Shown here in pieces: positions 5,022 through 28,625 of a stretch of 37,913 nt of DNA. The DNA comes from a virus. Where the stretch lies: the IMG/VR virus record IMGVR_UViG_3300043436_003534, positions 1-37,913 of that record; one strand, written 5' to 3'. A program made the position numbers and the translations under genes. The notes under the pieces are model-generated. The model was not told where the DNA came from and ran no database searches. It worked only from the letters and a program-made list of their open reading frames with translations. Numbering within the stretch: the first letter of the stretch is position 1; each line of letters begins with the position of its first letter.

Positions 5022-6922
5022 CACATCATCTGGGCTTGTTCAGCGGGAGCCGCTACCTCCGCGGGAACCGGAGCGGGGGGTTGCGAGGAAGCGAGCAATC
5101 CCGTGCTCTCGAAGAACTTCTGGATATCCTTCCGCAGCTTCCTCGCCTCGTTCGTAGCCACCTGCTCGTAGCCCTGGAGCAGGCTATCGATCCGCATCAT
5201 GAACGCGTTCTGGCTCACCGGACTCAGTTGCTGCCCCTGCTGAATCGCACCATTCAGGTACTGCATCAGCACCCCGATCCGACCCGCATAATTCTGACCC
5301 GGCTTGGCCGGCACCGGAATACCAACCAAGAGCGTTGGTATGGTCTTGGTCTCGTCCTCCAGCTCGTCCGCCGCCTTCTGGCCCGGATCCCGGAGCAGCC
5401 GCTTCACAAGGCTCGGGTCATCCAACTCCATGATGCTCTTATCCAGCTCCACCTGATCCACCCAGGGCGAGTTCATGAACAACTGCTTCCGGTTAATGGC
5501 CTGCTGAACCATCATCTGCCGGCTCACCATGTCCATGCCACCCTTCGGCTCCAGCTCGTACTGATCGTGCAACGCAATCGGGTCCGCCTCCAACGAGTCC
5601 TCCGCAAACCGGTACCGCAGGCTCTTGGAATCATACTGCACATACAAGCCCCACGCCTGCCGGTACAATTTGCCCAGTGCCATGCGGAACAGCCGAGCCC
5701 GGAGATCCCCGCTCTGCATGGCCTGAGCGTTGATGCTCTGGATCTCGGTCGCGGTCCTCCGATCACTTCCACCGCTCATCACACTGCCCATCGCGTAATC
5801 CGGGCTACCGATCCGGTTCTCAGCCACGGCCCGCGTCTGGTTCAGCTCCTGATCAAAGCTCACCGGCGGCTGCGGCATCTGCACCGGAGCGACCCCGTAC
5901 GGGAGAATCTGCCCCGGCTGGAACCGCAGGTTGATGCTATTGGGCAACTCCCGCTCCGCCCGGAACAGCGGGCGATTGTACAGCGTCATCGCATCATGCT
6001 TGTGGTTCCACATCGAGGTCATAGACAGCTCGAACGGAGCCAGGATCTCGCACACTCCACGTGGGCTGAACCAGCCCTTGTCCTTGATCTCGTAGGGGAA
6101 ATCGATGAATGGCAGTTGGCCATGGTCATACGGGAGCTCCATGGGATCCCGCAGATCCAGATCCACCGCCGCGGGGCTATACAGATACACCTCCCACACC
6201 CCGTCATCCCGCTTCCGGTACACCTCCCAGACAATCACACCATCGGTGTTGTTGGTGTACGTGATACCCTCGCGCAACTGCTTCGCATCGTCCTCGGTCG
6301 CCGCGCCCGGGATATTGTCATCCTGCTGCGGGTTCCCCCGGATCTTCTCAATCGTCTTGGAGTCCGACTTCCACCCAAACTGGCCAGCCATCCGCTTGTA
6401 CGCTGGCACACTCATCGGCATCACATGCACCGCCCAGTCCGCATCCTGCAAATCCGTGGTATACGCCGGCACCACAAAATACATCGGGTCCACCGCCTCA
6501 AACCCCACCCGCTTATCACCCGGATTCCAGAAGCACTTCATCACCCCGCGCCCGCTCATCAGCGTGTAATCCACCCAGGAGAGGACCTCGTCAGTAAAGT
6601 TGGTCTTCTCCCGGATCTTATAATTGAACCAGTCCTCCGCCACCTTCGTGTACGCGTTCAACTGCTGCCTCATCGGCACAAAGCTGGCCACCACATCCAT
6701 CCCCAGCGCCTGCTGGAGGAATAGCGGCTTGAGCTTCTCGATCGCGGTATCGATCAGCGGCCAATGCAGATCCGCGGCCTTCGGCCAGGGCTTGTTCGTC
6801 CGGCGAAGACCATGATGGCGCAACTCATACCACCGAGTCTGCCGCAGCTCCCACGGGCTCCGCTGGCCCACGGCCTCAACAATCTGCCCCTGCAACGCAT
6901 TCCGCTGTTTATCGCTCATCAT
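5021..6922 (-). CDS. portal protein
   Basis: 633 residues starting MMSDKQRNALQG at ATG 6922, preceded by AGGAGGGGAGG, one of the strongest SD sequences in the window. Portal-family signs include KAADLHWPLIDTAIEKLK, DWFNYKIREKTNF, the DPMYFVVPAYTTDLQDADW block with PMSVPAYKRM, and a C-terminal Gln/Pro/Ala-rich tail (SQPPAPVPAEVAAPAEQA). It forms the dodecameric vertex for DNA entry and tail docking. It follows terL directly (terL stop 6940). Length and motif style fit portals of podoviruses. Confidence 0.9.
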   Translation of the reverse strand: MMSDKQRNALQGQIVEAVGQRSPWELRQTRWYELRHHGLRRTNKPWPKAADLHWPLIDTAIEKLKPLFLQQALGMDVVASFVPMRQQLNAYTKVAEDWFNYKIREKTNFTDEVLSWVDYTLMSGRGVMKCFWNPGDKRVGFEAVDPMYFVVPAYTTDLQDADWAVHVMPMSVPAYKRMAGQFGWKSDSKTIEKIRGNPQQDDNIPGAATEDDAKQLREGITYTNNTDGVIVWEVYRKRDDGVWEVYLYSPAAVDLDLRDPMELPYDHGQLPFIDFPYEIKDKGWFSPRGVCEILAPFELSMTSMWNHKHDAMTLYNRPLFRAERELPNSINLRFQPGQILPYGVAPVQMPQPPVSFDQELNQTRAVAENRIGSPDYAMGSVMSGGSDRRTATEIQSINAQAMQSGDLRARLFRMALGKLYRQAWGLYVQYDSKSLRYRFAEDSLEADPIALHDQYELEPKGGMDMVSRQMMVQQAINRKQLFMNSPWVDQVELDKSIMELDDPSLVKRLLRDPGQKAADELEDETKTIPTLLVGIPVPAKPGQNYAGRIGVLMQYLNGAIQQGQQLSPVSQNAFMMRIDSLLQGYEQVATNEARKLRKDIQKFFESTGLLASSQPPAPVPAEVAAPAEQAQMM

Positions 6923-6939
6923 AAATGTCCTCCCCTCCT

Positions 6940-8475
6940 TTATCCCCCTACCTCGCAACCAGCAAGCGCAACCCCCTCCGGCTCAATTGCTCCAAGCTCA
7001 TCCTCCATCCGCTCCAGCAGGCTCCGCCCATCCTCGCCCAGCGCCTTCATGTACTCGTCCATCCGCTTCCCGCCACCACCACAGAAGGCCAATACCATCG
7101 CATCCGCCCGATCCGGACTGTTCACCCCTCTGGCGCGTAGCTCATCCTTCCCCTCCAGCGTCAACTTCCCCTTCCCGTTCGTCCGCACCTTCCTGCTCAC
7201 GAACTGCTGCAACAGCACCTCGTCCGTCCCCACCGGCCCCAGGTTCACCTTCCCCTCCTCCACCATCCGCCCGAACTCAATCCACATCTCAGCCGCACGG
7301 TTCACGAACTGATCATCCCGGATGGCCCGCTCCCCGAAATTCACCCGCCTCACATCCCAGCCCTCCGCCCTGAGGGCGTCGCACATGACAACCCCCATGC
7401 CACCCACATCCGCGTAGATGTCCTCGGCCTTCAGCTTCCATTTGCGGAACTCGCTGATGAAACGACCCACACTGGCCATCGTGTCCTTGTCCCGCCAGCG
7501 GATCAGCCCCTTCACCGTGTTCCCATGGCGCACCACCATCACGCTCTCATCCCCGCCGGCGCTGAAATCGCAGCCCGCGGTCAATCGGTGCCCCTCCGTA
7601 TCCTCCTTGGGTGGGCCACTCACAACCTTCTGCCAGTCAGCAGTTTTGACCGCCGTGAGACTCCCGTCATCCTCCATGAACTCCGCGTAGATCATTGAGC
7701 GAACCAATGGATGACCCTCGCCCCAGCGGGCCATCTGCTCATCAATCCACTCCTTCCGGATATGCGGGCAGTCGTAAGCGGTAACGGTAAAGGTCTGCCA
7801 CTTGCCATCATTCCGTCGGAATACATCGTAGAAGTACCCGGAGCTGCCACCAGGACTACTCATCAGCAGAGTCCGCGTCGGCTGGCACCGCTCCATCGAC
7901 TGGAATATCCCGTCCGGTACCGCCTTCGCCTCGTCCACAATGTACATCAAGTCATTGCTCGGACCCTGCACGTGCCAGCCCTCCGCCTTCTCCGGGTTGC
8001 TGGCTGAGAACCCAATACACCGGCTGATCAGCTCCTGACCGTCCACTTTCTTCGGGTACACATACCGGATCTCGCCATCCTTGATCGAGAATCCATTCTC
8101 CTCCCCTCCCAACCCATTGATCATCTTCCGCAGGTGAGGCCACAACGCGTCGGCCACCTGTCGGTACACACCAGCGGTACAAACCACCAAGCTCCCCGGC
8201 CAGCGGAGCATGTGCCATACCACCGCGCTCGCCGCTACCATGCTCGTCTTGCCAGAGCCGTTCGCAGCTTTCAACGCCACCTTCGAGTGCTTCTCGTTCA
8301 ACGCCCCCAACACCGCCTCCTGCCACGCGTAGGTTTCACGTAGGCCAAGCATCATCTTGGGGAAGTTCTTCAGCTGCTGAGCCTCCTCCAAGAGCTTGCG
8401 CTGCTTCCACGCAGGGATGTGAGAACCCATGCCAAGTGAAGGGGATTTCTTGCGCTTAATTTGCTTGACGGGCAT
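6940..8475 (-). CDS. terL: terminase large subunit
   Basis: 511 residues from ATG 8475 (MPVKQIKRKKSPS); the upstream open part is encoded by repeat DNA and is not family-like. ATPase motifs: Walker A AANGSGKTS (residues 70-78), Walker B LMYIVDEAKAV, and a coupling-like SSPGGSSGYF. The C-terminal RNase H-like nuclease shows TAGCDFSAGGDE, IYADVGGMG and the DRADAMVLAF end motif. The product cuts and pumps DNA into procapsids through the portal encoded next door. The leader is A/C-rich (CACACCAAATTTT) without SD. Confidence 0.93.
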   Translation of the reverse strand: MPVKQIKRKKSPSLGMGSHIPAWKQRKLLEEAQQLKNFPKMMLGLRETYAWQEAVLGALNEKHSKVALKAANGSGKTSMVAASAVVWHMLRWPGSLVVCTAGVYRQVADALWPHLRKMINGLGGEENGFSIKDGEIRYVYPKKVDGQELISRCIGFSASNPEKAEGWHVQGPSNDLMYIVDEAKAVPDGIFQSMERCQPTRTLLMSSPGGSSGYFYDVFRRNDGKWQTFTVTAYDCPHIRKEWIDEQMARWGEGHPLVRSMIYAEFMEDDGSLTAVKTADWQKVVSGPPKEDTEGHRLTAGCDFSAGGDESVMVVRHGNTVKGLIRWRDKDTMASVGRFISEFRKWKLKAEDIYADVGGMGVVMCDALRAEGWDVRRVNFGERAIRDDQFVNRAAEMWIEFGRMVEEGKVNLGPVGTDEVLLQQFVSRKVRTNGKGKLTLEGKDELRARGVNSPDRADAMVLAFCGGGGKRMDEYMKALGEDGRSLLERMEDELGAIEPEGVALAGCEVGG

Positions 8476-8547
8476 AAAATTTGGTGTGGGACGGGGAGGG
8501 GGTATATAGGTAACACCCACCCCCCTCTTGGGGGTCCTGGTACCCCG

Positions 8548-8612
8548 TGGTCCTATGCATTGAACTGCCATCCATTGGTTCCTGATCCATTGGACTCGGA
8601 TGCATAGAAGTC
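8548..8612 (-). repeat. four-unit 15-bp repeat array (terL-terS gap)
   Basis: Cores at 8555, 8570, 8585 and 8600 on the plus strand (ATGCATTG, ATCCATTG, ATCCATTG, ATGCATAG) are spaced exactly 15 bp. Read on the minus strand the unit is roughly NNNNNNCCAATGSAT, and the array ends CATAGGAC. A same-type array in the opposite orientation lies at 10850-10910. Iteron-like; it could be a binding site for terminase small subunit, an initiator or a regulator. Confidence 0.75.
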
Positions 8613-9062
8613 TTACTTCCCCCCTCCGAAGGCACCGAGTAGTGCACCGCTTACTGACAACTCCTTCCCACCTTTACCAGTGTGTTCCAATTGAGCGCGA
8701 GCTACGTAGCCTCTCGTTCGCTCCAGTAACCATGCGGAGCCTTGCCATCCGGGACCGCAGGAACGGACTACGGATGTGAGGTCATACTCGCCCCTGGTTT
8801 TCGCAGCATCGATCTCCTCCTTTCGTTCAGGGTATCGCAGCAAGTACTTGGCGAAGGTTTTATCCGTCATGCCTGCAAGGTGACACAAGCGATCGAAAGG
8901 GATCCCGAGTGAAGCGCCGTCGAGGACCCGGTTCCAATTGGAAGGAGCAACCTCCTTTGGTGGAGGACCTTTTTTTAGTGGCTTCCGGACAGAAGGAATT
9001 GGTGCCTCTTTCCTTTCCACCCTTTCCACCACAACTACTTCCTTTTCCTTCACCTTGGCCAT
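8613..9062 (-). CDS. terS: terminase small subunit-like DNA-binding protein
   Basis: 149 residues from ATG 9062 (MAKVKEKEVVVVERV), chosen over the open GTG/ATG-less extension because a palindrome lies in front of it. A basic Pro/Lys linker leads to a helix-turn-helix block: SLGIPFDRLCHLAGMTDK then TFAKYLLRYPERK, and helices with WQGSAWLLERTRGY. The GxxxxRLCxLAGMxxxTF pattern with a C-terminal ExxxPGWQGSAWxLER helix is typical of small terminase-like proteins encoded next to terL. It would recognise packaging sites and load TerL. Confidence 0.75.
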   Translation of the reverse strand: MAKVKEKEVVVVERVERKEAPIPSVRKPLKKGPPPKEVAPSNWNRVLDGASLGIPFDRLCHLAGMTDKTFAKYLLRYPERKEEIDAAKTRGEYDLTSVVRSCGPGWQGSAWLLERTRGYVARAQLEHTGKGGKELSVSGALLGAFGGGK

Positions 9063-9065
9063 GGA

Positions 9066-9088
9066 TTCACTTTGCCCCACAAAGTGAA
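9066..9088. promoter_or_regulatory. perfect 9-bp inverted repeat in front of terS
   Basis: TTCACTTTG-CCCCA-CAAAGTGAA, arms 9066-9074 and 9080-9088, ending three bases before the terS ATG on the minus strand. It shares TTCAC/GTGAA half-sites with GTGAACC copies at 9084, 9105 and 9151. It could be an operator or an RNA hairpin controlling terS translation. Confidence 0.65.
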
Positions 9089-9115
9089 CCACTCTGAAAT
9101 AAATGTGAACCGGTG

Positions 9116-9144
9116 TTGACAAGTACCGCCTTCCGTTGCATTCT
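9116..9144 (+). promoter_or_regulatory. putative rightward promoter for the small-gene operon
   Basis: TTGACA (9116-9121), 17-bp spacer, CATTCT (9139-9144). The predicted start is near 9151, about 30 bases before ATG 9181. A TTGTCA on the minus strand overlaps the same bases (9117-9122), so a divergent terS promoter may share this site, though no clear minus-strand -10 is seen. Confidence 0.55.
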
Positions 9145-9150
9145 TCCCCC

Positions 9151-9170
9151 GTGAACCGATAGTCGGTTCC
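9151..9170. promoter_or_regulatory. operator-like inverted repeat with GTGAACC half-site
   Basis: GAACCGA-TAG-TCGGTTC, arms 9153-9159 and 9163-9169, perfect over 7 bp, starting right at the predicted start of the 9116 promoter. Its GTGAACC half matches copies at 9084 and 9105. A bound repressor here would block early rightward transcription. Confidence 0.6.
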
Positions 9171-9180
9171 TTCCTACACC

Positions 9181-9291
9181 ATGAAAACACGCTCAAAACT
9201 CCTCCGTGCTCTAGGATTCCTAGCGCTTCACCTCCTCCTCCTCCCGGTCATCTGGCTTTTGGCCGATGCTTTGATCGGAGGTGCAAATTGA
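9181..9291 (+). CDS. 36-residue single-span membrane peptide
   Basis: ATG 9181 to TGA 9291. Basic start MKTRSKLLRALG followed by a hydrophobic segment of about 20 residues (FLALHLLLLPVIWLLADAL) and a short GGAN end. A single inner-membrane helix with positive-inside N-terminus is predicted. First gene after the 9116 promoter; its stop overlaps the TTG start of the next ORF (TTGA). Unknown role; tiny membrane peptides at the head of phage operons often act on host membranes, but nothing specific is shown here. Confidence 0.65.
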   Translation: MKTRSKLLRALGFLALHLLLLPVIWLLADALIGGAN

Positions 9292-9542
9292 CTCTTTACC
9301 GTTGCAACGGCTTCCGCTCCGTCCGCTCCGATTCTATCCGGGACGCCGCCGGGGTTTTCGCGAAACGTGCCGCCCGGCGGGCATTCGGTCGCCGTGGTAT
9401 CGTCCGAACCCTCGTGGAGGATTCCTACACCCGGAACCTGTCCATCGTGGAGTTTGCCGCTTTCATAGGCTACAGCACCGGTCCCAATGAAACGACGGGC
9501 CACAATGTTCGTTTTACCGTGATCAACGGAGGTGCCCTTTGA
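9288..9542 (+). CDS. small protein of unknown function (TTG start)
   Basis: 84 residues read from TTG 9288, which overlaps the upstream stop (TTGA). Sequence MTLYRCNGFRSVRSDSIRD then AARRAFGRRGIVRTLVED and FAAFIGYSTGPNETTG. The end of the frame overlaps the next TTG start by the same TTGA pattern, so both junctions support the start. Mixed alpha/beta with no known motif. Unknown function; probably co-translated with the Cys-rich gene that follows. Confidence 0.65.
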   Translation: MTLYRCNGFRSVRSDSIRDAAGVFAKRAARRAFGRRGIVRTLVEDSYTRNLSIVEFAAFIGYSTGPNETTGHNVRFTVINGGAL

Positions 9543-10243
9543 ACGGATTTGTCCTTCACGAGGATCGCGACCGCGTGATCATCGCGACCGGCTTCTCTTC
9601 CCCTTCCGACAATCGGAAAACGGGCGATATGATCCAAATTTGGATTCTTGTCAAAGCCGTTTCCCCTACCGAAGCAATTCGAACGGGGTTGGACCGTTTG
9701 ATCTGCGGCAATTGCGTCCATCGCGGGCACGAAGAAAACGGTCGCTTCGGTGTGGAAAGGACATGCTACGTAAATCCCGGCCAAGCTCCCCAAGGGATTT
9801 GGAAAGCGTGGAAAGCGGGCCGATACTCTCCCTTGCGCAGTCTCGAGTGTTTCGTTGGAAGGAAAGTCCGATTCGGCGCATATGGCGATCCTACCCATAT
9901 CCCTTTGAGCCTCGCCCTCGCGATCGCGGGCGTTGCAAGCGGTCACACGGGCTACACCCATCAGTGGAGAAAACCCTCCTTGCAAGGGTGGAAATCGCTT
10001 TTGATGGCCTCCGTGGATTGCATCGCTGAGCTTGTGATTGCCCGGTCCATGGGGTGGAGCACCTTCCGTGTGACACCCGATACCGATCATCACACGGTGG
10101 AAACCCTGTGCGCCTCCGACCGAGTCGGCACTCCCTGCGCCGATTGCCTAGCCTGCGCGGGCTCCCGTTCCGGTGTCCGCTCAATCCACATCCCGGTGCA
10201 CGGGACCGGACGTCGACACTTCATTGAGTCGGCCAGTGTGTGA
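9539..10243 (+). CDS. conserved Cys-rich phage protein of unknown function
   Basis: 234 residues from TTG 9539. The N-terminal part reads SDNRKTGDMIQIWILVK, then a Cys block ICGNCVHR...TCYVNPGQAPQGIWKAWK, and near the end TLCASDRVGTPCADCLACAG. I recall similar proteins (NRKTGDM, CGxCxHR, CYVN.GQAP, CxxCxxC) from phages and plasmids of several phyla, always without known function. The Cys clusters suggest a metal or Fe-S site, possibly in a nucleic-acid enzyme. Middle of the rightward operon, coupled to its neighbour by TTGA. No SD. Confidence 0.75.
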   Translation: MNGFVLHEDRDRVIIATGFSSPSDNRKTGDMIQIWILVKAVSPTEAIRTGLDRLICGNCVHRGHEENGRFGVERTCYVNPGQAPQGIWKAWKAGRYSPLRSLECFVGRKVRFGAYGDPTHIPLSLALAIAGVASGHTGYTHQWRKPSLQGWKSLLMASVDCIAELVIARSMGWSTFRVTPDTDHHTVETLCASDRVGTPCADCLACAGSRSGVRSIHIPVHGTGRRHFIESASV

Positions 10244-10311
10244 GTTGTCCGGTCAGCCTATGGGGGCGACTCCGTAGGTTGCGCGGGCAATTGACGCCCT
10301 TACAAGAAAAC

Positions 10312-10545
10312 ATGAAAACCACACAAGTCCCTACCGCAACCCGCAACCCGTACCGAATCAGCGCCATGGAAGCGCTTGAAAACGAGGGTTGGGAACCATC
10401 CGAAGACGGCGCTTTTGAATACGCCCGCCATGCTATGTTCGATGGCACCTCGCCCGCTTGTTGCACTGAGGGTTGCATTGTCGAACCAGACGGGCGCTGC
10501 TCCCATGGGTGCCCTTCACTTCTGATCGCCCTTGGCATGATCTGA
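10312..10545 (+). CDS. small Cys-rich conserved phage protein
   Basis: 77 residues from ATG 10312 (MKTTQVPTATRNPYRIS), preceded by ACAAGAAAAC, another A-rich leader without SD. It has MEALENEGWEPSEDGAFEYA and ends CTEGCIVEPDGRCSHGCPS plus LLIALGMI. The VEPDGxCxHGCPSxLxALGxI ending is shared by small proteins of many phages and bacteria. Cys spacing C-x3-C-x7-C-x3-C fits a small zinc-binding fold. Role unknown. A 68-bp gap separates it from the previous gene. Confidence 0.8.
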   Translation: MKTTQVPTATRNPYRISAMEALENEGWEPSEDGAFEYARHAMFDGTSPACCTEGCIVEPDGRCSHGCPSLLIALGMI

Positions 10546-10547
10546 TC

Positions 10548-10622
10548 ATGAAAACAACCCACACTTTCCTACTTGAAGAGCACGCCCGGGAGTTTTCGCT
10601 TTTAATCGAGGCTTTGGAATGA
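10548..10622 (+). CDS. 24-residue peptide
   Basis: ATG 10548 (two bases after the previous stop) to TGA 10622. Sequence MKTTHTFLLEEHARE then FSLLIEALE, a single amphipathic acidic helix. Support is only positional: its end overlaps the ATG of the next membrane peptide (ATGA) and its start resembles the MKTTQ start of the gene before it. It may be a real small protein or just a coupling leader. Confidence 0.4.
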   Translation: MKTTHTFLLEEHAREFSLLIEALE

Positions 10623-10711
10623 CCGATCTATTCCGTGCCCTTGGCTACCTCTTGCTTGGCGCTTTCTTCGTTGCCCTTATGGTCCTCTCCGCCCTAGCGG
10701 GCAACGGTTGA
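10619..10711 (+). CDS. 30-residue single-span membrane peptide
   Basis: ATG 10619, overlapping the upstream stop, to TGA 10711. MTDLFRALGYLLLGAFF then VALMVLSALAGNG: nearly the whole peptide is one hydrophobic helix. With the 36-residue peptide at 9181 it gives this operon a membrane peptide at each end. A terminator-like hairpin follows 23 bases later. Function unknown. Confidence 0.5.
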   Translation: MTDLFRALGYLLLGAFFVALMVLSALAGNG

Positions 10712-10733
10712 TAGTCGGCCACTCTCCCCCTTC

Positions 10734-10768
10734 GCCCCCGTATGGTTCGCCCTGCGGGGCTTTTCTTT
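10734..10768 (+). terminator. possible terminator of the small-gene operon
   Basis: GCCCC (10734-10738) pairs with GGGGC (10756-10760), followed by TTTTCTTT. An alternative short stem GCCC-TGCG-GGGC (10749-10760) ends at the same U tract. It lies just after the last gene of the 9181-10711 set. Confidence 0.5.
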
Positions 10769-10849
10769 GCCCGGATCCGGCGTCCACTCGGTTCCCTTCC
10801 TTCCTTCCTTCCCAGTCAACCTCTCCGCCAGGTTGCCCATTACCCTTGC

Positions 10850-10922
10850 ACTCCAATGCATGATTCCCCAATGCATTGCTCCCCGATGCATTGCGCCCCT
10901 ACCCATAGGACATGGCATGTCC
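10850..10922 (+). repeat. second four-unit 15-bp repeat array plus palindrome
   Basis: Cores at 10856, 10871, 10886 and 10901 (ATGCATGA, ATGCATTG, ATGCATTG, ACCCATAG), again exactly 15 bp apart, with the same unit type (NNNNNCCCAATGCAT) and the same CATAGGAC end as the 8548-8612 array but in the opposite orientation. The array is followed at once by GGACATG-G-CATGTCC (10908-10922), a perfect 7-bp inverted repeat. No gene is seen here. Confidence 0.75.
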
Positions 10923-11024
10923 CACCCCTCCGTTTATGATCCGCGCCCACAACTTATGCACCGGCCCATACGCCATACAGAATTCGGAATTCGGAATCTT
11001 GAAATCCGGAATCCGCGGAGCCCC

Positions 11025-11118
11025 GAGCATGGAGCGGCATCCCGCGAGCATGGAGCGGTAGAAGCGATTTATTCCATCCCCACACTTTCACGCTTGACGA
11101 CTGAGCATGGAGCGGTAG
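11025..11118 (+). repeat. three copies of GAGCATGGAGCGG
   Basis: Copies at 11025-11037, 11046-11058 and 11103-11115; the last two extend to GAGCATGGAGCGGTAG. The first two are 21 bp apart. The third overlaps the spacer of a TTGACG promoter in front of the 11132 gene. The stretch 10769-11131 otherwise holds the 15-bp array, some GGAATC-type short repeats near 10981-11015, and no credible gene. Confidence 0.7.
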
Positions 11119-11121
11119 GGT
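11094..11121 (+). promoter_or_regulatory. putative promoter of the 11132 gene
   Basis: TTGACG (11094-11099), 16-bp spacer, TAGGGT (11116-11121). The predicted start falls only a few bases before ATG 11132, giving an almost leaderless message. The third GAGCATGGAGCGG repeat fills most of the spacer. Confidence 0.45.
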
Positions 11122-11131
11122 GTGTCCCGAC

Positions 11132-11320
11132 ATGAGCATTCCCCTTGTTCCCTTCCTGCGTCTGCGTGACTGCGAGGAGCCCTTCGTGATGTGCGGTGAG
11201 CGATGGCTATTCGTCACCTGTCTCCGTGCTGACGGCATGCCTGACATCGGTGTGTACCGATTCTCGACGGACCTGACGCACGACTATCTGGCGTGGCGAG
11301 AGGCTTTCAACCTGCGCTGA
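11132..11320 (+). CDS. 62-residue protein of unknown function
   Basis: Starts at ATG 11132 (MSIPLVPFLRLRDCEEPF); an in-frame GTG four codons earlier is less likely. It reads VMCGERWLFVTCLRADG, then GVYRFSTDLTHDYLAW. The xVYRFSxDLTxDYxxWRxxFNL end resembles small phage proteins I have seen without function. Two Cys flank a beta strand. 23 bases separate it from the next gene, so they are likely co-transcribed from the TTGACG promoter. Confidence 0.7.
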   Translation: MSIPLVPFLRLRDCEEPFVMCGERWLFVTCLRADGMPDIGVYRFSTDLTHDYLAWREAFNLR

Positions 11321-11343
11321 TATACAAACAACAGGCCAACGAT

Positions 11344-11544
11344 ATGACACTAAGCGAGATCAAGTCTGCTGTGAGAGATGGCAAGACTGTGCATTGGAAG
11401 AACCATGGGTACCGAGTGATATACGCTCCCAAGCTCAATGACTTCCTGATCCGGTTCGACTACAACGATGACTGCATTGGTCTGACATGGGTGGACGGCG
11501 TGACGATGAACGGCGAGGAGGCGGACTTCTTCATTGCCGAGTAG
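11344..11544 (+). CDS. conserved 66-residue phage protein
   Basis: Starts at ATG 11344 (MTLSEIKSAVRDGKTVHW). The pattern MTLxEIKxAVxxGKTVxWxNxxYxV ... CIGLTWxDGVTxNG is shared by small proteins common in phages and plasmids of varied hosts; the end here is CIGLTWVDGVTMNGEEADFF. Its function is unknown. The leader CAACAGGCCAACGAT is A/C-rich and lacks an SD. It is the last gene before the 11573 terminator. Confidence 0.8.
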   Translation: MTLSEIKSAVRDGKTVHWKNHGYRVIYAPKLNDFLIRFDYNDDCIGLTWVDGVTMNGEEADFFIAE

Positions 11545-11572
11545 GCCAAACATCCCCATCACCACTCCGCGG

Positions 11573-11607
11573 AGCCCTCGGACCACCCATCCGGGGGCTT
11601 TCCGTTT
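11573..11607 (+). terminator. rho-independent terminator of the 11132-11544 pair
   Basis: Ten-pair stem AGCCCTCGGA (11573-11582) / TCCGGGGGCT (11590-11599) with one G-U pair, 7-nt loop, then TTTCCGTTT. It sits 29 bases after the 11544 stop. Confidence 0.75.
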
Positions 11608-11820
11608 CCAGCCCCGCGGACCCCGCTTTCGCAATTTGATGCGGAATCCCCCCTCCGACGCACTGGCGACCCCTTTCTGATCGATTGCGAGGCATCCACA
11701 TCCATCCATCGGACCAAGCATTCCGGTCCCAGCGTCCGGATACCCCTACCTCCCATCCTCCGGATCCCCGGATCCCTGCTTCCCTGCTTCCAAGTTTCGC
11801 AATCCGGAATCAGGGGTTCT

Positions 11821-11887
11821 CAAAAATTGCCGCCGAGCGCGGGGCGTCTTGAAACGCCCCCGCAGCGTCTCGGCGATGCTATTTTTG
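11821..11887. terminator. 67-bp near-palindrome, probable bidirectional terminator
   Basis: Outer arms CAAAAAT / ATTTTTG (11821-11827, 11881-11887), then GC / GC, then CGCCGAG / CTCGGCG (11831-11837, 11869-11875), and an inner stem GCGGGGCGT / ACGCCCCCGC (11839-11847, 11854-11863) with one bulge and loop CTTGAA. GC stem flanked by A and T tracts on both sides suits termination in both directions. The 11608-11820 stretch before it holds no gene that I can support. Confidence 0.65.
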
Positions 11888-11928
11888 ACTCCCTTTTAAG
11901 GGAGTAGTAAGACTCCCTTTTAGGGGAG
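11888..11928. repeat. tandem palindromes ACTCCCTTTTAAGGGAGT
   Basis: A perfect 8-bp-arm palindrome at 11888-11905 is repeated imperfectly at 11912-11928 (ACTCCCTTTTAGGGGAG), 24 bp later and each preceded by G. They lie between the large hairpin and the 11986 promoter, where an operator or an origin element would be expected. Confidence 0.6.
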
Positions 11929-11944
11929 ATAGCGGGGGGGGCGC

Positions 11945-12022
11945 GGAACTTTCTGGGACCGTGATTGGAAGTTCCTTCTGGATACTTGACGGGTGCCCCG
12001 GGAGAACGTACCTTGGTTCTCC
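11945..12022 (+). promoter_or_regulatory. promoter with nested inverted repeats before the 12024 gene
   Basis: TTGACG (11986-11991), 17-bp spacer, TACCTT (12009-12014); predicted start about 12021, two or three bases from ATG 12024. GGAGAAC/GTTCTCC (12001-12007, 12016-12022) wraps the -10 and start site. GGAACTT/AAGTTCC (11945-11951, 11969-11975) lies upstream. The 10-mer AGAACGTACC (12003-12012) also occurs over the -10 of the 23.5-kb promoter. Confidence 0.55.
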
Positions 12023-12023
12023 T

Positions 12024-12641
12024 ATGAGTTATCTAGAGAACGGTTCCACCCTCCGCGCCATGTTCCGCCTGATGCCGCCGATGAGGCACGACGCCGACCC
12101 TACTCGGTCCGAGGTCGTGACCTACATTCGCGAGAATCTGAAATGCGATCTTGGCCGTGCGCTTCGTGCGTTTGATTCGATGCGCCACATGAAGAGCGCG
12201 GTATTGATATTCGATCGTATCCATCGCCAGTGGCGTGGTTGTGATTGGGTTCCCGCCGAGGAGGTTGATAAGGTATCAATGCTATTGGCAATGATCACTG
12301 AGATGAAGCGTGATATATCCTCGCTGAGGTCTGAGCTTCGTAAGGTGAAGGGTGAGGTCGTGTGGCTGCGTCGTCGCAAGGGAGGCAGGAAGACCGATGA
12401 TGTGGCCGACTCGGAGGAGGATGATCTGGATTCGAAACCCCAACAGCAACAAGCCGCTCCCCCCGAAGAGAAAGCGGCTGATGGAGAGGACTGGTTTAAG
12501 GCTATGCGCGACGCCCTCGACGAGGATAAGAAGGCTTCTTCGGTGGCTGCGGCTCCTTCAGTTGCGCCCCGGTCATCACCATGGGATTCCACTGCTCCCA
12601 CAGAATATCCTTGGGAGAATGCTGAAGATGTAGTGAGTTAG
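12024..12641 (+). CDS. 205-residue protein, helical with coiled coil and acidic tail
   Basis: Starts at ATG 12024 (MSYLENGSTLRAMFRL) directly at the predicted transcription start. The N-terminal 80 residues are helical and basic (SEVVTYIRENLKCDLGRAL, then HRQWRGCDW). Residues about 90-120 form a coiled coil (MKRDISSLRSELRKVKGE) followed by WLRRRKGGRK and a low-complexity Gln/Pro/Ala/Glu-rich tail with EDWFKAMRDALDEDK and YPWENAED. It looks like a DNA-binding or scaffold-type regulator, but no family is recognised. Its last 140 bases overlap the end of the primase-helicase gene on the other strand. Confidence 0.7.
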   Translation: MSYLENGSTLRAMFRLMPPMRHDADPTRSEVVTYIRENLKCDLGRALRAFDSMRHMKSAVLIFDRIHRQWRGCDWVPAEEVDKVSMLLAMITEMKRDISSLRSELRKVKGEVVWLRRRKGGRKTDDVADSEEDDLDSKPQQQQAAPPEEKAADGEDWFKAMRDALDEDKKASSVAAAPSVAPRSSPWDSTAPTEYPWENAEDVVS

Positions 12642-23558: not shown

Positions 23559-26500
23559 TTATTCCTCGAAGCCTCGACGGGGAGCGACCGGGGTCAAAGT
23601 CTGGCCGGATTCTCGCAATTCCTTGAGGAATCTGAGCTTTCCGAGCTTGAGCCCGTTGTCGTAAGCCTCGGACAACAACTTGATGCGAGATTCATCACCG
23701 CGCTGCTGGTAGGCCCCGCTCATAAAGGCTCGTTCAGAGAACTTCCGTCGGTAAAACCCTACGAGTTGAGCGTATCGGTCGAACTGCTCAGGCGTCATGC
23801 GCTCGAACGTCTGATTCTTGTAGGTGAGCTGCGGATTCGGCACTGACGGGAGCGCCTTGTTGTCCGCAGTCCTGCGCCACACGCGGTAAATTGAAGCATT
23901 CAGTGGATCGGCATCGATCTCTCGGTTCTTGGCGAACGAAAGGAACTGGTAAACCCACGGGTTGTTGCCCTTCGGTGTCTGCTCAACCGCTTCTCCCCAC
24001 AGATCACGGCGCACCGGCATCGCATTCGGATCCTTCGTGCCAGGGATGGCCAATCCAAGGGCTGCGAACCGCTGGTTTAGCTCATTTACCGTGTCCTTAA
24101 TGATGCCTTCTCCGCCCGTGACGGGCAGGTACTCGCGTTCAGCGCGGCGAATGGAACCGAGAGTAGATGGGGCGACTGGGGATGCAGCGGTAACCGCCAG
24201 ATTCTTCACGAACCGCTCAAGCGAAGCGCCCGATTCCTCGGACATCAGCTTGATCAGGTCGCTCGTTCCTTTGAGGAACTGCTGCTCCATTACAAAGTTG
24301 ATGCCAGACAGAGCAGACCCCTTTCCGAGGGCGAAGAAGTCAGGTTCATCGGTGCGTGAACGCTCTGCGATACGCTTCGAGGATCCAACGATGATGCCGA
24401 GAGCGCCCATGGTTCCGAGGGCTGACAAGTCTTTGACGGTGTCCCCCGGCTGGAAGCTAGGATCCTGACCCGAAGTCAGGCGGCGCAGGGCCGACACGTT
24501 GATTGTTCCGGGAGGCATGACACCACCAGCCTTGGCCAACTCGCGGGCCTTGTTCGTCTCGCCAGGAGTGTCGAGGTTGGGGGTGACGATACCCTTGTCG
24601 TATAGATAGGAGAACGCCCCCATCACCATGCTTCCAACGATGAGCCGGCCAACAGCCTGCTCACGGTCGCGCACACTCATTTTGCTCCAGTTCCTGAGAA
24701 CGCCAGCAGGAGTGAACTGCAATGCTTCTGCGGCGACGTTGATCGGCGTCTTCTGGAAGAGCGAGATCAGGCGGTACGGGACGTATCCAAGAGAACCAGT
24801 CTCCTGTTTGATGAACCGGTTGATGCCGGCCACCATGCGGGTGGCGGAATTGTCCTGCTGGAACACTGACCGAGCGGCCTCGGTTTCGATCGTGTTGATG
24901 TCATCCGCGGTGAATCCCTTGCGCCCATTGGCACGAGCCTGATCAGAGATCAGCGCAAGCTCAGGATCCTTGAGTGCCAGCTTGATTTGACTTTCGGTGA
25001 GACCGCGCATGCGTCCCAACTCAGAGACGATCGCCGCACGGTTGGCCTGCTTGAACGGGATGTCGGTCGCCTGAGTCAGTCTCAGCATGATGTCGGGCAT
25101 CACGCCGACCGTGGCTTCTACGATATTGCGGGCCACGTTTCCTCGGTACTCACCGGACATGGCCTCGTACAGATTCTTCCACGCCCGCTGGAAGTTGAGC
25201 GGGTTTCCGATGCTTGTTCCCAGTTCGTATGGGTTGGCGTTGGAACCCCTGAGAATCGCTTTCTGTGCAGCGGGCAAAGATTGTCCAAACGCCTTGATAC
25301 GATCGAGCAACCGAGACCTGTAGTTGTAAGCGTTGTTCTTGCTTCCAAACAGCGCCATGTCTATGAGCGACGAAGTGATGTCGGCAGTCTCGCGGAGCGG
25401 CAGGTTGATGGCGTTGCCGACCACGTTGCGAACGATGGAGATCGGGGCCATGACCGATCCCTGAACGAGCGACACGAAGAGATCAGCGGCAGACGACGGA
25501 TTGATTTTGGAGATCGTCTCGTTCAACGCCACATCCGCTTCCATGCGAAGCGTGTCAGCAGCGTTGATTCGATCGATGGCACTCTGGATTTCCGCGGGGT
25601 TGTTAGACTCGAAAGCACCACGGCCTTCAACACGGGCGGCGGTCGCAGCGTCCTGAGCGATCTTGTACTGATCCATTGCAGTGCCGAGTTGTTCGGCCTG
25701 CTTTGGAGTCATCGGCTTGCGCTTGTTCTGTTCAAGCGACTTTGTGACGAGCTGGATCACGCCCTCACGGCTGGCTGACTTGAGGAGCTTGAACTGGTTG
25801 ATGAGCTGACCCCAGGTGGTACCGCTCTTTGAAAGCGACAGTGCGGTTTTGGTCGCGCCCTCCATGTCGCCACTGGCAATCTGGCGATTGAACTGCTCCA
25901 TCCCCGAAATCACCCGAGTGTTCGATTCCGGATCGATGATGTCTGCGGCCAACTGACGGTCTGTCTTGGTGGACGCATCGGCCACTTCAGCGGCAACATT
26001 CTGCTGCCTATACACAGCCTCTGGAGAAGCGGCTACAGCTTCACGAATGACGGGTGGAACGCCAGGAGCAGCAGCAACGCGCTCAGCGAATCGGCGAGGC
26101 TCCATGACCGGAGGAGCTTTGATCTCAGCAGGAGTTTGAATCGTGCGCGTGAGTTGATTCGAGAACTCATTCTCATCAAACGACTCGCGGAAGTTCTGCT
26201 TGGCATAGCGGATTCCCGCGGCAACACCGTCGGCCACAGATCCGCCAGCGCGAATCACAGCTTGGGCGACCGACAGCGCACCGTTCCAAGCCGCGCCCAT
26301 GAGTTGAGGGAACGGGTTTGCACCGACACCGGGTTCGACTTTAACTCTTAAACCTTCAAGTTTTTGGGCAATTTGATTTGCTTTTTCAGCGTATTGTTTT
26401 GTTGGTAAATCTGATCGCATCGCAACTCTGACTGGAATCTCTTTCAATCCAATTGCATTTGCAGCTCCAAATCTATGCTCTCCATCAACAACCACCAATT

Positions 26501-28625
26501 GACCCGATTCGTTTATTTCAACAACAATAGGCGGTATTTGATTTGGATCCGATTTAAGAATAGCGGCTATATCATTAACTTGATCCCCTGTTAATGGAGA
26601 ATCAAATTCACCTGATTTGATATCAGATGTCGGTATCTTTTTGACTGGGCTTAATTTGTATTCAACATCTAATCCAAACCTTTTTCCCTCTGTATTGTAT
26701 TTCCACATTCCTGGAACTTGTTTTGTTCCATTCCATTCAGGTACTTTTGATTTACCTTGAGTCTCTTCGAGCGCCTTGTTCCAGACCTCGTTGAAGATCG
26801 TTTCCTCAGCAACGGATTGGCCTGCCGGCTTCTCCTTCATCCGAAGCAACTTCTCGACCGTTGCCCTGGTGACTCTTACGGATTCACCACGAGCAGCGCC
26901 TGACTCCAACGCTTCGGCAGCTGCTTCAGCGGCGAGTCGGCGATCTCTTGATTCGAGAGCACGAGCGAGTTTCTCGCTGGCAGTTTCAAGAGGAACGCGA
27001 GCCTGCTCTGCCGCAATCCTCTGCTGTTCAGCGGCCACACGCTCATCACGGGCGCGAAGCCGTTCAGCCATGATGTCCTCGGCGCTGCGAAGCGGGGTAC
27101 CTTCTTGAACAGACTCTTCAACGATAGCCTCTCGTTGAGGTAGTAGGCCACCTTCACGAGCGCGTCTGGGTTCAGTCAGAACCTCAGGTGCTTCAATGCG
27201 AGGCTCGATCTGTCGGCGCAGCTCTTCGGCAATCTGACGGGCAGAAGGACGCGGTTGAACCTCCTGCTCAATCATCACTTCCTCAGGGGTAAGCTCACGA
27301 CGAAGCCCTTCTCGGATCAAAGCGGCTTGTTCACGAACACGTTGACGGCGAGCAGCCATTTCGGCCTGAGCTTCCTTGGCAGTACGAAGAGGTGTTCCAG
27401 CGCCAGCGGCTTCGCGTTCCAAAGCCCGCTGCTGTTCTGCGGCGATTCTCTCGTCCCGAGCACGAAGACTGGCCTGCAAGATTTCGTCCTGCGTGCGAAG
27501 CGTGGAAGGTACCTCTGGTTCAACCACTTCACGCGGAGGAAGCATTCCACCTTCAACCTGAGCGCGAGGGCCTTCTCCAATGGTCTCGGGTCGATAAACA
27601 AACGGTTCGTCAGGATTCAGTTGCTGACGAAGTTCGGTGAATCCCTCTCTGATTCTTTCAAGAGTCGGAGGCTCAACAAGGCGGTCCATCTCATCGATGA
27701 GTCCGCTCACTTTGCTGATGGCCTCTCCAACGGTTTGCTTGCGCGAAGCTATGCCTTCAAGCACTTCAGCCTGAGTGACACCGCGCTTGAATCCGAATGT
27801 GCGTCCAACTTGAGCTCCAAGTCCTGCCGCGAACAATGTGCTGACAGCGGCTTCGAGCGAAGTCTTGAGCTTCTCTTCTGGGCTGACGTTGGGGTCGGCC
27901 AATGCCTCAAGGGCGGCTCCGGTTGATCCGATAGCACCACGAGTGACTTCGGGAGCGAGCGCAGCCGGAATGCCTTCCTCAAGGATCTGAGAAGCTCTAG
28001 CGGCTTCTGCGGCTCTACGCACATCGGAGATTGCACCAGCGCGAGAGACTCCTTCAACAACCTCTGGAATTGCCGCAGCACCACGTGCTGCTCCTCCGAT
28101 TCCGAGTGTCATGAGGTTCATCGGAGAGAGCAGGTCGGCAGCGACCTGACCGGCGACTTCACCTCCAGCGCGTGTGGCAGATTGAGGAATAGCAGCAACG
28201 CCAGGACTGACGATCCTAGCTATGTCGGCCAACTGACTGCCGAGTCGAGCGCCAAGCTCCCGCTTCTCTGGAGAAGCAGACAGTAACGCCATCATGCCTT
28301 CTCGATCGATTCGAGAGGCTGCATCAAGCATTTCAGGCTTTGGCTCTTGTCCTGTGACTTTCTGCAACGTGCGACCGATTGTGGCCACATCCTGTGGCAT
28401 CGGAGTTCCGAACGCCAAAGGAGCGGCAACACGAGCGAACGAAGGAGCGACAGCTTTGGCCTGCTCTAAAAGACTCGGAGGAGCTTGGAGTACAGGCGCA
28501 TTGGGATACTTCTGAGCACCTGCAAAAGCGAAGGCGCGATCGATATCCTCCTTCTTCGGAGGCCGCTCACCTTCAAGCTCAAGAGTGATTCCCGTCTCTT
28601 CCTGAGTGACCTCGTAGATTGGCAT
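23559..28625 (-). CDS. giant polyvalent-type internal virion protein with ParB-like insert
   Basis: 1688 residues. It begins MPIYEVTQEETGITLEL, then Ala-rich helical parts with possible membrane segments (SPMNLMTLGIGGAAR). Residues about 375-600 hold two copies of a charged module (LRARDERIAAEQQR / LRARDERVAAEQQR). Residues about 622-763, from AT-rich DNA, form a ParB-like domain (IPPIVVEINESG, VVDGEHRFGAANAIG). The C-terminal half (SAADLFVSLVQGSVMAP, RNVVGNAINLPLRETAD) resembles large phage polyvalent or ejected proteins. It is likely injected with DNA. End GRLIVGSMVMGAFSYLY may span membrane. Confidence 0.8.
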   Translation of the reverse strand: MPIYEVTQEETGITLELEGERPPKKEDIDRAFAFAGAQKYPNAPVLQAPPSLLEQAKAVAPSFARVAAPLAFGTPMPQDVATIGRTLQKVTGQEPKPEMLDAASRIDREGMMALLSASPEKRELGARLGSQLADIARIVSPGVAAIPQSATRAGGEVAGQVAADLLSPMNLMTLGIGGAARGAAAIPEVVEGVSRAGAISDVRRAAEAARASQILEEGIPAALAPEVTRGAIGSTGAALEALADPNVSPEEKLKTSLEAAVSTLFAAGLGAQVGRTFGFKRGVTQAEVLEGIASRKQTVGEAISKVSGLIDEMDRLVEPPTLERIREGFTELRQQLNPDEPFVYRPETIGEGPRAQVEGGMLPPREVVEPEVPSTLRTQDEILQASLRARDERIAAEQQRALEREAAGAGTPLRTAKEAQAEMAARRQRVREQAALIREGLRRELTPEEVMIEQEVQPRPSARQIAEELRRQIEPRIEAPEVLTEPRRAREGGLLPQREAIVEESVQEGTPLRSAEDIMAERLRARDERVAAEQQRIAAEQARVPLETASEKLARALESRDRRLAAEAAAEALESGAARGESVRVTRATVEKLLRMKEKPAGQSVAEETIFNEVWNKALEETQGKSKVPEWNGTKQVPGMWKYNTEGKRFGLDVEYKLSPVKKIPTSDIKSGEFDSPLTGDQVNDIAAILKSDPNQIPPIVVEINESGQLVVVDGEHRFGAANAIGLKEIPVRVAMRSDLPTKQYAEKANQIAQKLEGLRVKVEPGVGANPFPQLMGAAWNGALSVAQAVIRAGGSVADGVAAGIRYAKQNFRESFDENEFSNQLTRTIQTPAEIKAPPVMEPRRFAERVAAAPGVPPVIREAVAASPEAVYRQQNVAAEVADASTKTDRQLAADIIDPESNTRVISGMEQFNRQIASGDMEGATKTALSLSKSGTTWGQLINQFKLLKSASREGVIQLVTKSLEQNKRKPMTPKQAEQLGTAMDQYKIAQDAATAARVEGRGAFESNNPAEIQSAIDRINAADTLRMEADVALNETISKINPSSAADLFVSLVQGSVMAPISIVRNVVGNAINLPLRETADITSSLIDMALFGSKNNAYNYRSRLLDRIKAFGQSLPAAQKAILRGSNANPYELGTSIGNPLNFQRAWKNLYEAMSGEYRGNVARNIVEATVGVMPDIMLRLTQATDIPFKQANRAAIVSELGRMRGLTESQIKLALKDPELALISDQARANGRKGFTADDINTIETEAARSVFQQDNSATRMVAGINRFIKQETGSLGYVPYRLISLFQKTPINVAAEALQFTPAGVLRNWSKMSVRDREQAVGRLIVGSMVMGAFSYLYDKGIVTPNLDTPGETNKARELAKAGGVMPPGTINVSALRRLTSGQDPSFQPGDTVKDLSALGTMGALGIIVGSSKRIAERSRTDEPDFFALGKGSALSGINFVMEQQFLKGTSDLIKLMSEESGASLERFVKNLAVTAASPVAPSTLGSIRRAEREYLPVTGGEGIIKDTVNELNQRFAALGLAIPGTKDPNAMPVRRDLWGEAVEQTPKGNNPWVYQFLSFAKNREIDADPLNASIYRVWRRTADNKALPSVPNPQLTYKNQTFERMTPEQFDRYAQLVGFYRRKFSERAFMSGAYQQRGDESRIKLLSEAYDNGLKLGKLRFLKELRESGQTLTPVAPRRGFEE

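What the first reader, a model, noticed from the sequence alone, without database searches (positions are those of the whole stretch)
8548..10922. Two inverted 4 x 15-bp repeat arrays flanking terS and the rightward small-gene operon
Four ATSCATTG-type cores at exact 15-bp spacing occur at 8555/8570/8585/8600 and again at 10856/10871/10886/10901. Read in opposite directions both arrays have the unit NNNNNNCCAATGSAT and both end with CATAGGAC. The second is followed at once by a GGACATG-G-CATGTCC palindrome. Neither lies in a credible gene. Arrays of this size and regularity are typical of iteron origins, packaging (pac) sites or operators. Paired, inverted and close to terS, they look functional and, as far as I know, are not a described element.
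Basis: seen in the sequence. Interest (0 to 1): 0.72.

Follow-up and report, generated by a model that had tools for sequence, protein, structure and literature searches.

The report
Swappable repeat arrays beside phage terminase
Next to its DNA-packaging genes this bacterial virus carries short arrays of 15-letter repeats; a distantly related family of viruses has the same kinds of array beside the same genes, so they are probably protein-binding sites that belong to the packaging region, although what binds them is not known.

Summary
Both arrays are real and above chance. Array 1 (8553-8612, minus) is exactly 4 x 15 bp, inserted between the terS stop codon and a conserved terS-terL spacer. 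Array 2 (10853-10907, plus) abuts the palindrome GGACATGGCATGTCC.

They are not an obligatory pair. Of 80 close relatives, 52 have 1-2 nt at the array-1 site, 2 have this array, 22 have other cassettes and 4 were not parsed. Of 9 other array-1 contigs readable at both loci, 3 have array 2.

A second phage family (TerL 30% identical) carries arrays of the same 15-bp unit, with a leader shared with a second lineage of the window's family, about 260-300 bp upstream of terS. A TAACGTTA-type cassette is also shared (37 bp, 95%). Every viral stretch with leader plus two units (34 of 34) lies beside terS. Array type does not follow the TerS DNA-binding domain, and I saw no window gene that follows array presence.

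Best reading: exchangeable, terminase-linked protein-binding sites, most likely an accessory part of the packaging-initiation region read by something other than the variable TerS domain, possibly a host protein. Operators and replication iterons remain open.

The parts
8553..8612 (-). Array 1: 60 bp = 4 x 15-bp units (GACTTCTATGCATCC / GAGTCCAATGGATCA / GGAACCAATGGATGG / CAGTTCAATGCATAG) directly after the terS stop
   Evidence: of 80 relatives L005 and L006 have it, 52 have only 1-2 nt there
8550..8557 (-). CATAGGAC, end of array 1 and first bases of the conserved spacer
8476..8552 (-). Conserved G/C-rich terS-terL spacer present with or without an array; hairpins predicted but without covariation
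10853..10907 (+). Array 2: units CCAATGCATGATTCC / CCAATGCATTGCTCC / CCGATGCATTGCGCC / CCTACCCATA, with a weaker unit upstream (score 27 from 10839)
10908..10922 (.). 15-bp palindrome GGACATGGCATGTCC; GGACAN5TGTCC or a near form stands at this locus in most relatives
   Evidence: 16 of 19 records have an exact match: 15 once, G007 three times
10736..10766 (+). Terminator-like hairpin with T-rich tail after the rightward small-gene operon, upstream of array 2
8613..9122 (-). terS (open frame; likely start 9062, MAKVKEKEV); variable N-terminal domain, constant C-terminus; weak hit to phrog_4102
6940..8475 (-). terL (likely start 8475, MPVKQIKRKK)
9181..10712 (+). Rightward small-gene operon between the two arrays (includes the phrog_2554 protein 9539-10243)
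11133..12641 (+). Next rightward genes downstream of array 2, ending with the 12024-12641 protein

Best explanation
The arrays are exchangeable cis-acting DNA sites of the phage terminase region. Each is a run of short, often palindromic protein-binding sites at fixed spacing. Inferred mechanism: several copies of a DNA-binding protein sit side by side on the repeats and shape or mark the DNA next to terS/terL, helping terminase choose or position itself on phage DNA when packaging starts; in role this resembles the accessory TerS and IHF sites of lambda cosB. Shown: existence, spacing, terminase-side location of every leader-bearing array found in the viral collection, cassette sharing between families, lack of tracking with TerS. 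Inferred: protein binding, role in packaging, nature of the binder.
For: A scan of the viral collection for leader plus two units gave 34 stretches, all 34 with terS beside the array: 28 of the window's family between terS and terL, 6 of family B upstream of terS. In family B the array starts about 260-300 bp before terS in the four genomes measured. The two TerLs are 30% identical, yet a 37-bp cassette is 95% identical between the families (E 3.6e-12) and three cassette types occur in both. In array 1 and in family B the ATSSAT units read along the terminase coding strand. Position is flexible (after terS in one family, before it in the other), as with known packaging sites. In 288 Verrucomicrobiota genomes 3 matched a three-unit pattern, the same number as for the reversed control pattern. 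A distant inverted accessory site has a precedent: N15's proposed, non-essential rR2, about 200 bp away inside the terS gene (PMC4669245, passages read).
Against: 52 of 80 close relatives lack any cassette at the array-1 site, so it cannot be essential there. TerS type does not follow cassette type (family B), unlike a classical TerS-read cosB. No gene of the window was seen to follow array presence in the table for 26 other records, many partial (read by eye, window frames of 50 aa or more only). Contig ends show no excess in the 500-bp bin at array 1 (7, against 14 at 6500-6999 and 12 at 11000-11499). Array 2 lies 2.2 kb from array 1, upstream of a rightward operon, on the other strand relative to terL, which fits an operator as well. 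The scan pattern was built from the two families that it then found. The TAACGTTA and CAATAG cassettes are not 15-bp periodic (best lags 19-20). One Verrucomicrobiota chromosome (G258) has a long variable 15-bp array of other sequence that is not beside these terminases.
Confidence: 0.4

Rival explanations
1. Operators: the repeats bind a regulator (phage or host) that times transcription of terminase (array 1, family-B arrays) and of the rightward operon (array 2).
For: Palindromic units at fixed spacing; array 2 lies between a terminator-like hairpin and the next rightward genes and touches a conserved palindrome that overlaps a promoter-like match at 10912-10940 (3 such matches found against 2.0 expected, so weak); family-B arrays lie in a gap of about 1.1 kb without conserved frames, upstream of terS.
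Against: Array 1 stands inside the terS-terL pair, not before it; the consensus scan found no promoter-like match near it; no regulator gene found that follows the array type.
Confidence: 0.25
2. Iterons of a replication origin, with swappable specificities like those of lambdoid origins (the comparison is recalled).
For: In four family-B genomes an array of about 9-11 units is flanked by a segment among the most A+T-rich of the genome (0.3-3.6% of 150-bp windows are lower in G+C), at the point where the long gene blocks diverge.
Against: In the window no A+T-rich segment adjoins array 2 (0.57 G+C to its right, 0.64 to its left); 52 of 80 relatives lack any array at the array-1 site; initiator not identified. 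The gene across the gap in family B differs with array type in most genomes, but G317 breaks the match.
Confidence: 0.15
3. Neutral or recombination-related filler: a hypervariable junction behind terS, built by slippage and horizontal exchange, that marks the crossover point at which TerS domains are swapped.
For: Hypervariable site; the 60-bp insert is flanked by TAGGAC on both sides in relatives whose terS ends in TAG; TerS N-terminal domains are exchanged close by.
Against: Regular 15-bp spacing with near-identical sequence in ten contigs carrying three TerS types, recurrence upstream of terS in a second family, and related repeats at the array-2 locus all argue for constraint.
Confidence: 0.2

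Closest known systems
lambda / N15 cosB (R3, R2, R1 TerS sites with an IHF site; N15 inverted rR2 site)
   Same: Several short protein-binding sites beside terS, differing between related phages, with a proposed inverted accessory copy at a distance (PMC4669245, passages read).
   Different: Lambda sites are read by TerS and packaging specificity differs between phages at that contact; here array type does not follow the TerS domain. Lambda has three R sites around an IHF bend, not 4-11 evenly spaced units; no cosN identified here.
P1 pac site (clusters of repeated short elements in the terS gene; recalled, the search showed listings only)
   Same: Repeated short elements in clusters beside the terminase small-subunit gene.
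   Different: P1 elements are hexamers inside the coding gene and methylation-controlled (recalled); here the units are 15 bp, intergenic and exchangeable.
Iteron replication origins (plasmid and lambdoid; recalled)
   Same: Evenly spaced direct repeats; in family B beside an A+T-rich segment.
   Different: Missing in most relatives at this site, no A+T-rich neighbour in the window, initiator unknown.
Mycobacteriophage stoperators (search listing and starts of abstracts seen)
   Same: Repressor-type binding sites outside genes.
   Different: Stoperators are distributed across the genome; here each array-bearing genome examined has one or two clustered loci.

Membership tests
lambda-type cosB | sites lie beside terS | tested here: met
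   34 of 34 leader-bearing arrays lie beside terS; array 1 too; array 2 of the window lies 1.7 kb from the terS frame
lambda-type cosB | site specificity changes together with the TerS DNA-binding domain | tested here: not met
   84 distinct loci: most TerS types occur with several cassette classes (T1: 2 window-type, 8 empty; T2: all five classes); T3 (1 locus) and T8 (3 loci) each with one class only. Family-B TerS of G025 is 86-87% identical to same-type and 88-89% to TAACGTTA-type genomes, 78% to G316
lambda-type cosB | fixed genome end (cosN) next to the sites | tested here: inconclusive
   168 contig ends mapped: 7 fall at 8423-8556, but other 500-bp bins hold more (14, 12, 10); several complete contigs look circular or terminally redundant
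iteron replication origin | three or more evenly spaced direct repeats | tested here: met
iteron replication origin | adjacent A+T-rich unwinding region | tested here: inconclusive
   yes in four family-B genomes, no in the window
iteron replication origin | cognate initiator whose specificity follows the repeats | tested here: inconclusive
   none seen in the window's family; family-B candidate gene broken by G317
transposon ends with tandem transposase sites | both ends present together with a transposase and a target duplication | tested here: not met
   array 1 without array 2 in 6 of 9 contigs; among 30 window proteins scanned no transposase or integrase family, only an HTH match to a DNA-invertase family (phrog_125, E 0.0014); target duplication looked for by eye only
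stoperators | many sites over the genome plus an immunity repressor | tested here: not met
   one or two array loci in each array-bearing genome scanned; repressor not sought

The most novel reading that the evidence does not exclude
Phages, probably of Verrucomicrobiota, carry an exchangeable terminase address cassette: repeat arrays of at least three sequence types, shared between phage families and read by a host-encoded protein rather than by TerS, so that packaging or terminase expression is tuned to the host and cassettes are traded when phages change host.
Probability: 0.22. Interest if true: 0.82.

Novelty: new variant of a known kind. Interest (0 to 1): 0.6.

Why it matters
Packaging initiation is usually described as TerS reading its own site. 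A terminase-side site that is exchanged between phage families while TerS varies independently would separate the two and point to a third partner. The natural presence/absence and type variation among near-identical phages is a ready-made set of comparisons for finding that partner. The TerS domain swapping seen alongside (eight N-terminal types on one constant C-terminus, by the patterns) is in itself a test bed for packaging specificity.

Tried and rejected
TerS/pac cognate pair: rejected as the simple reading, since array type does not follow TerS type. Host chromosomal repeat: little support. At correct spacing 3 of 288 Verrucomicrobiota genomes matched and 3 matched the reversed control pattern; of the 3, G030 and G062 are perfect repeats of other units, but G258 has about 860 bp of variable 15-bp units around CAACGCATTCYTGYG in a chromosomal contig without TerS/TerL matches of either family within 10 kb. 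Transposon-like element with array ends: rejected (arrays occur separately; no transposase among 30 proteins scanned). RNA element: array RNAs fold somewhat better than shuffles (z -2.1 and -2.1; 5 and 10 of 200 shuffles as good), which palindromic units would give anyway, and array 2 lies beyond a terminator-like hairpin. Conserved terS-terL hairpins: no two-sided compensatory change in any of 8 predicted pairs over 29 sequences. Coding repeats: of 62 viral stretches with three CHAYSCAT units, 6 were family B and nearly all others lie in open frames of low-complexity proteins; L087, L088, L090, L092 look the same by eye. Akkermansia isolate phages: best array scores 23-24, no array. Contig-end mapping: not decisive. 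Partner gene by co-occurrence: none seen in the window's family; in family B a 126-aa gene goes with ATSSAT arrays in G025, G021 and G023, but G317 has the array without it.

Mistakes of mine: patterns had 14-bp spacing between units, and in its second gap, so their results say nothing about 15-bp arrays; one search repeated the chromosome search with the right spacing and the viral one. In one search the TerL query of the window's family was translated out of frame, so its identity figures are not used; positions and TerS hits are. Searches failed on input errors.
Full report
What is there. The window is a 37,913-base IMG/VR virus record. TerL hits phrog_2, TerS is a weak hit to phrog_4102 (E 0.0012), and other hits include a portal, a major head protein, a primase/helicase, a RecT-like protein, exonuclease VIII, an SSB and a Holliday junction resolvase. 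The closest isolates by TerL are Akkermansia phages at 31-36% identity. One relative (96% TerL) lies in a Verrucomicrobiota MAG (L099) and one (91%) in a MAG named Candidatus Aquidulcis (L100). A Verrucomicrobiota host is therefore likely but not shown.

The two arrays. Array 1 is four 15-bp units on the minus strand, 8612 to 8553, starting at the base after the terS stop and ending in CATAG, followed by the conserved GACCACGGGG spacer and the TerL start at 8475. Array 2 is four units on the plus strand at 10853-10907, behind a terminator-like hairpin after the small-gene operon and touching GGACATGGCATGTCC. Array scores of 32 and 31 stand against a best of 27 in 200 shuffles; the consensus was not blind to the arrays.

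Relatives, site by site. A scan with TerL found 251 viral stretches; the best 80 were kept (TerL 92-100% identical). At the array-1 site 52 of 80 have 1-2 nt, 2 have the window's array (L005, L006), 22 have other cassettes of 35-83 nt, and 4 (L025, L048, L062, L084) were not parsed. An exact-pattern scan gave 14 stretches: ten belong to this family (two of them the contigs of L005 and L006), and four (L087, L088, L090, L092) are unrelated and look like coding repeats. The array-2 locus was printed for 60 loci (59 contigs): 3 (L086, L091, L098) have array 2, and all 3 have array 1. Array 1 without array 2 is seen in six contigs: L005, L085, L093, L095, L096 and G009, the contig of L089; these show the ordinary locus with GGACAN5TGTCC-like palindromes. 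A later hit, L188, also has array 2; its array-1 site is not in view. The exact palindrome occurs in 16 of 19 records, 15 of them once.

A second lineage of the family has the palindrome CTATTTACATAG, or a one-base variant of it, at both loci in L070, L080 and L081, again inverted, and the exact or near form at one locus only in others such as L066 and L079. So the two loci do share motifs beyond this window, but not always.

A second phage family. A scan for three ATGCAT cores at 15-bp spacing gave 26 stretches. Among them L174, L176, L177, L185, L186 and L192 have intergenic arrays of about 9-11 units (L185 interrupted) with leader CGCTATTTACAWAG. In the three laid out (L174, L176, L177) terS follows, and in L176 and L177 also a 589-590-aa TerL and a 606-aa protein in the portal position (the names terS and portal are my reading of order and sequence, no family search was run on them). 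TerL of this family is 30% identical to the window's, and its best isolate hit is again an Akkermansia phage (30.5%). A TerL scan gave 12 loci. Of the 10 with terS in view, 7 have ATSSAT arrays (5 distinct), 2 (L278, and more weakly L279) the TAACGTTA type and 1 (L281) a CAATAG/CTATTG type. Similar types fill the terS-terL spacer of the window's family. Between the families a TAACGTTA cassette is 95% identical over 37 bp (E 3.6e-12), L132 and L281 share 25 bp at 96% on the same strand, and L068 and L281 share 28 bp at 93% on opposite strands (38 spacers against 10 upstream regions). The TAACGTTA and CAATAG cassettes are not 15-bp periodic; their best lags are 19-20.

Location. The last viral scan, leader plus two units, returned 34 stretches; all 34 have terS beside the array, 28 of the window's family and 6 of family B. 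The pattern came from these families, so the result shows that such arrays are not found elsewhere in that collection, not that all arrays are at terminases. A looser three-unit pattern found 62 stretches: 6 are of the set with 5 of them family B, and nearly all the rest lie within open frames of low-complexity proteins. At correct spacing 3 of 288 Verrucomicrobiota genomes matched, and 3 matched the reversed control. Two are perfect repeats of other units; the third, G258, has a chromosomal stretch of about 860 bp of variable 15-bp units of other sequence, with no TerS/TerL match of either family in the 10 kb around it. Fifteen-bp variable arrays therefore exist outside phages, rarely.

What does not track. 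In 84 distinct terS-spacer combinations the TerS N-terminal type (eight patterns, 6 loci untyped) is spread over cassette classes, except for T3 (1 locus) and T8 (3 loci). In family B the TerS of G025 is as close to the genomes with another array type (88-89%) as to those with its own (86-87%); G316 is at 78%. No window gene was seen to go with array presence in the table of 26 other records, many of them partial. The 12024 protein has a conserved N-terminal part and a variable tail, and its versions do not visibly follow the arrays.

How it most likely works. Regular, mostly palindromic repeats, conserved as DNA, found in the terminase region of two families, with sequence types exchanged between them, look like binding sites for an oligomerising DNA-binding protein. 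Position after terS in one family and before it in the other favours a packaging-linked site over a promoter-bound one, hence the choice of an accessory packaging site (0.40). Operators (0.25), neutral junction (0.20) and origin iterons (0.15) remain. For iterons, family B has an A+T-rich neighbour (lowest 0.3-3.6% of windows) but the window does not.

Known systems. [quoted passage not shown] A TerS review (PMC9611059, passages) describes pac sites within or near terS and weak TerS binding in vitro. Searches for a description of such arrays showed none in the rows listed: 15 of 33 papers listed; 12 of 56; 10 of 37; 12 of 116; 10 of 745; 12 of 132; 6 of 127. Most subscription papers are not in that library, so this is no proof of novelty.

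Noticed in passing
window 8613-9122 and L005-L098: TerS has eight exchangeable N-terminal DNA-binding domain types (by my patterns) on one constant C-terminus, in phages whose TerL is 92-100% identical: apparent domain swapping of packaging specificity.
   Followed up: partly
L176 2847-3227 (minus); L174, L280: 126-aa protein with an HTH-like look, across the non-coding gap from the array, in family-B genomes G025, G021, G023; other small proteins stand there in G314, G315, G316 and G317.
   Followed up: partly
L337 (G258, Verrucomicrobiota chromosome contig), about 860 bp: A long run of variable 15-bp units around CAACGCATTCYTGYG, with insertions that break the phase, in a bacterial contig: similar in build to the phage arrays, different in sequence.
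   Followed up: partly
window 23559-28625: 1688-aa protein with a ParB-like segment (residues about 656-763), possibly a large multi-domain early protein.
   Followed up: no
L069 7402 and 7498: Further GGACAN5TGTCC-like palindromes (one exact, one with two mismatches) around the likely terS start at 7485, besides the two at the array-2 locus.
   Followed up: no
window 9539-10243: 234-aa protein matches only the C-terminal part of phrog_2554 (profile positions 298-522 of 529), function unknown; perhaps a split gene.
   Followed up: no
window 11021-11115: Three copies of GAGCATGGAGCGG between array 2 and the next gene, and GAATTCGGAAT repeats before them.
   Followed up: no
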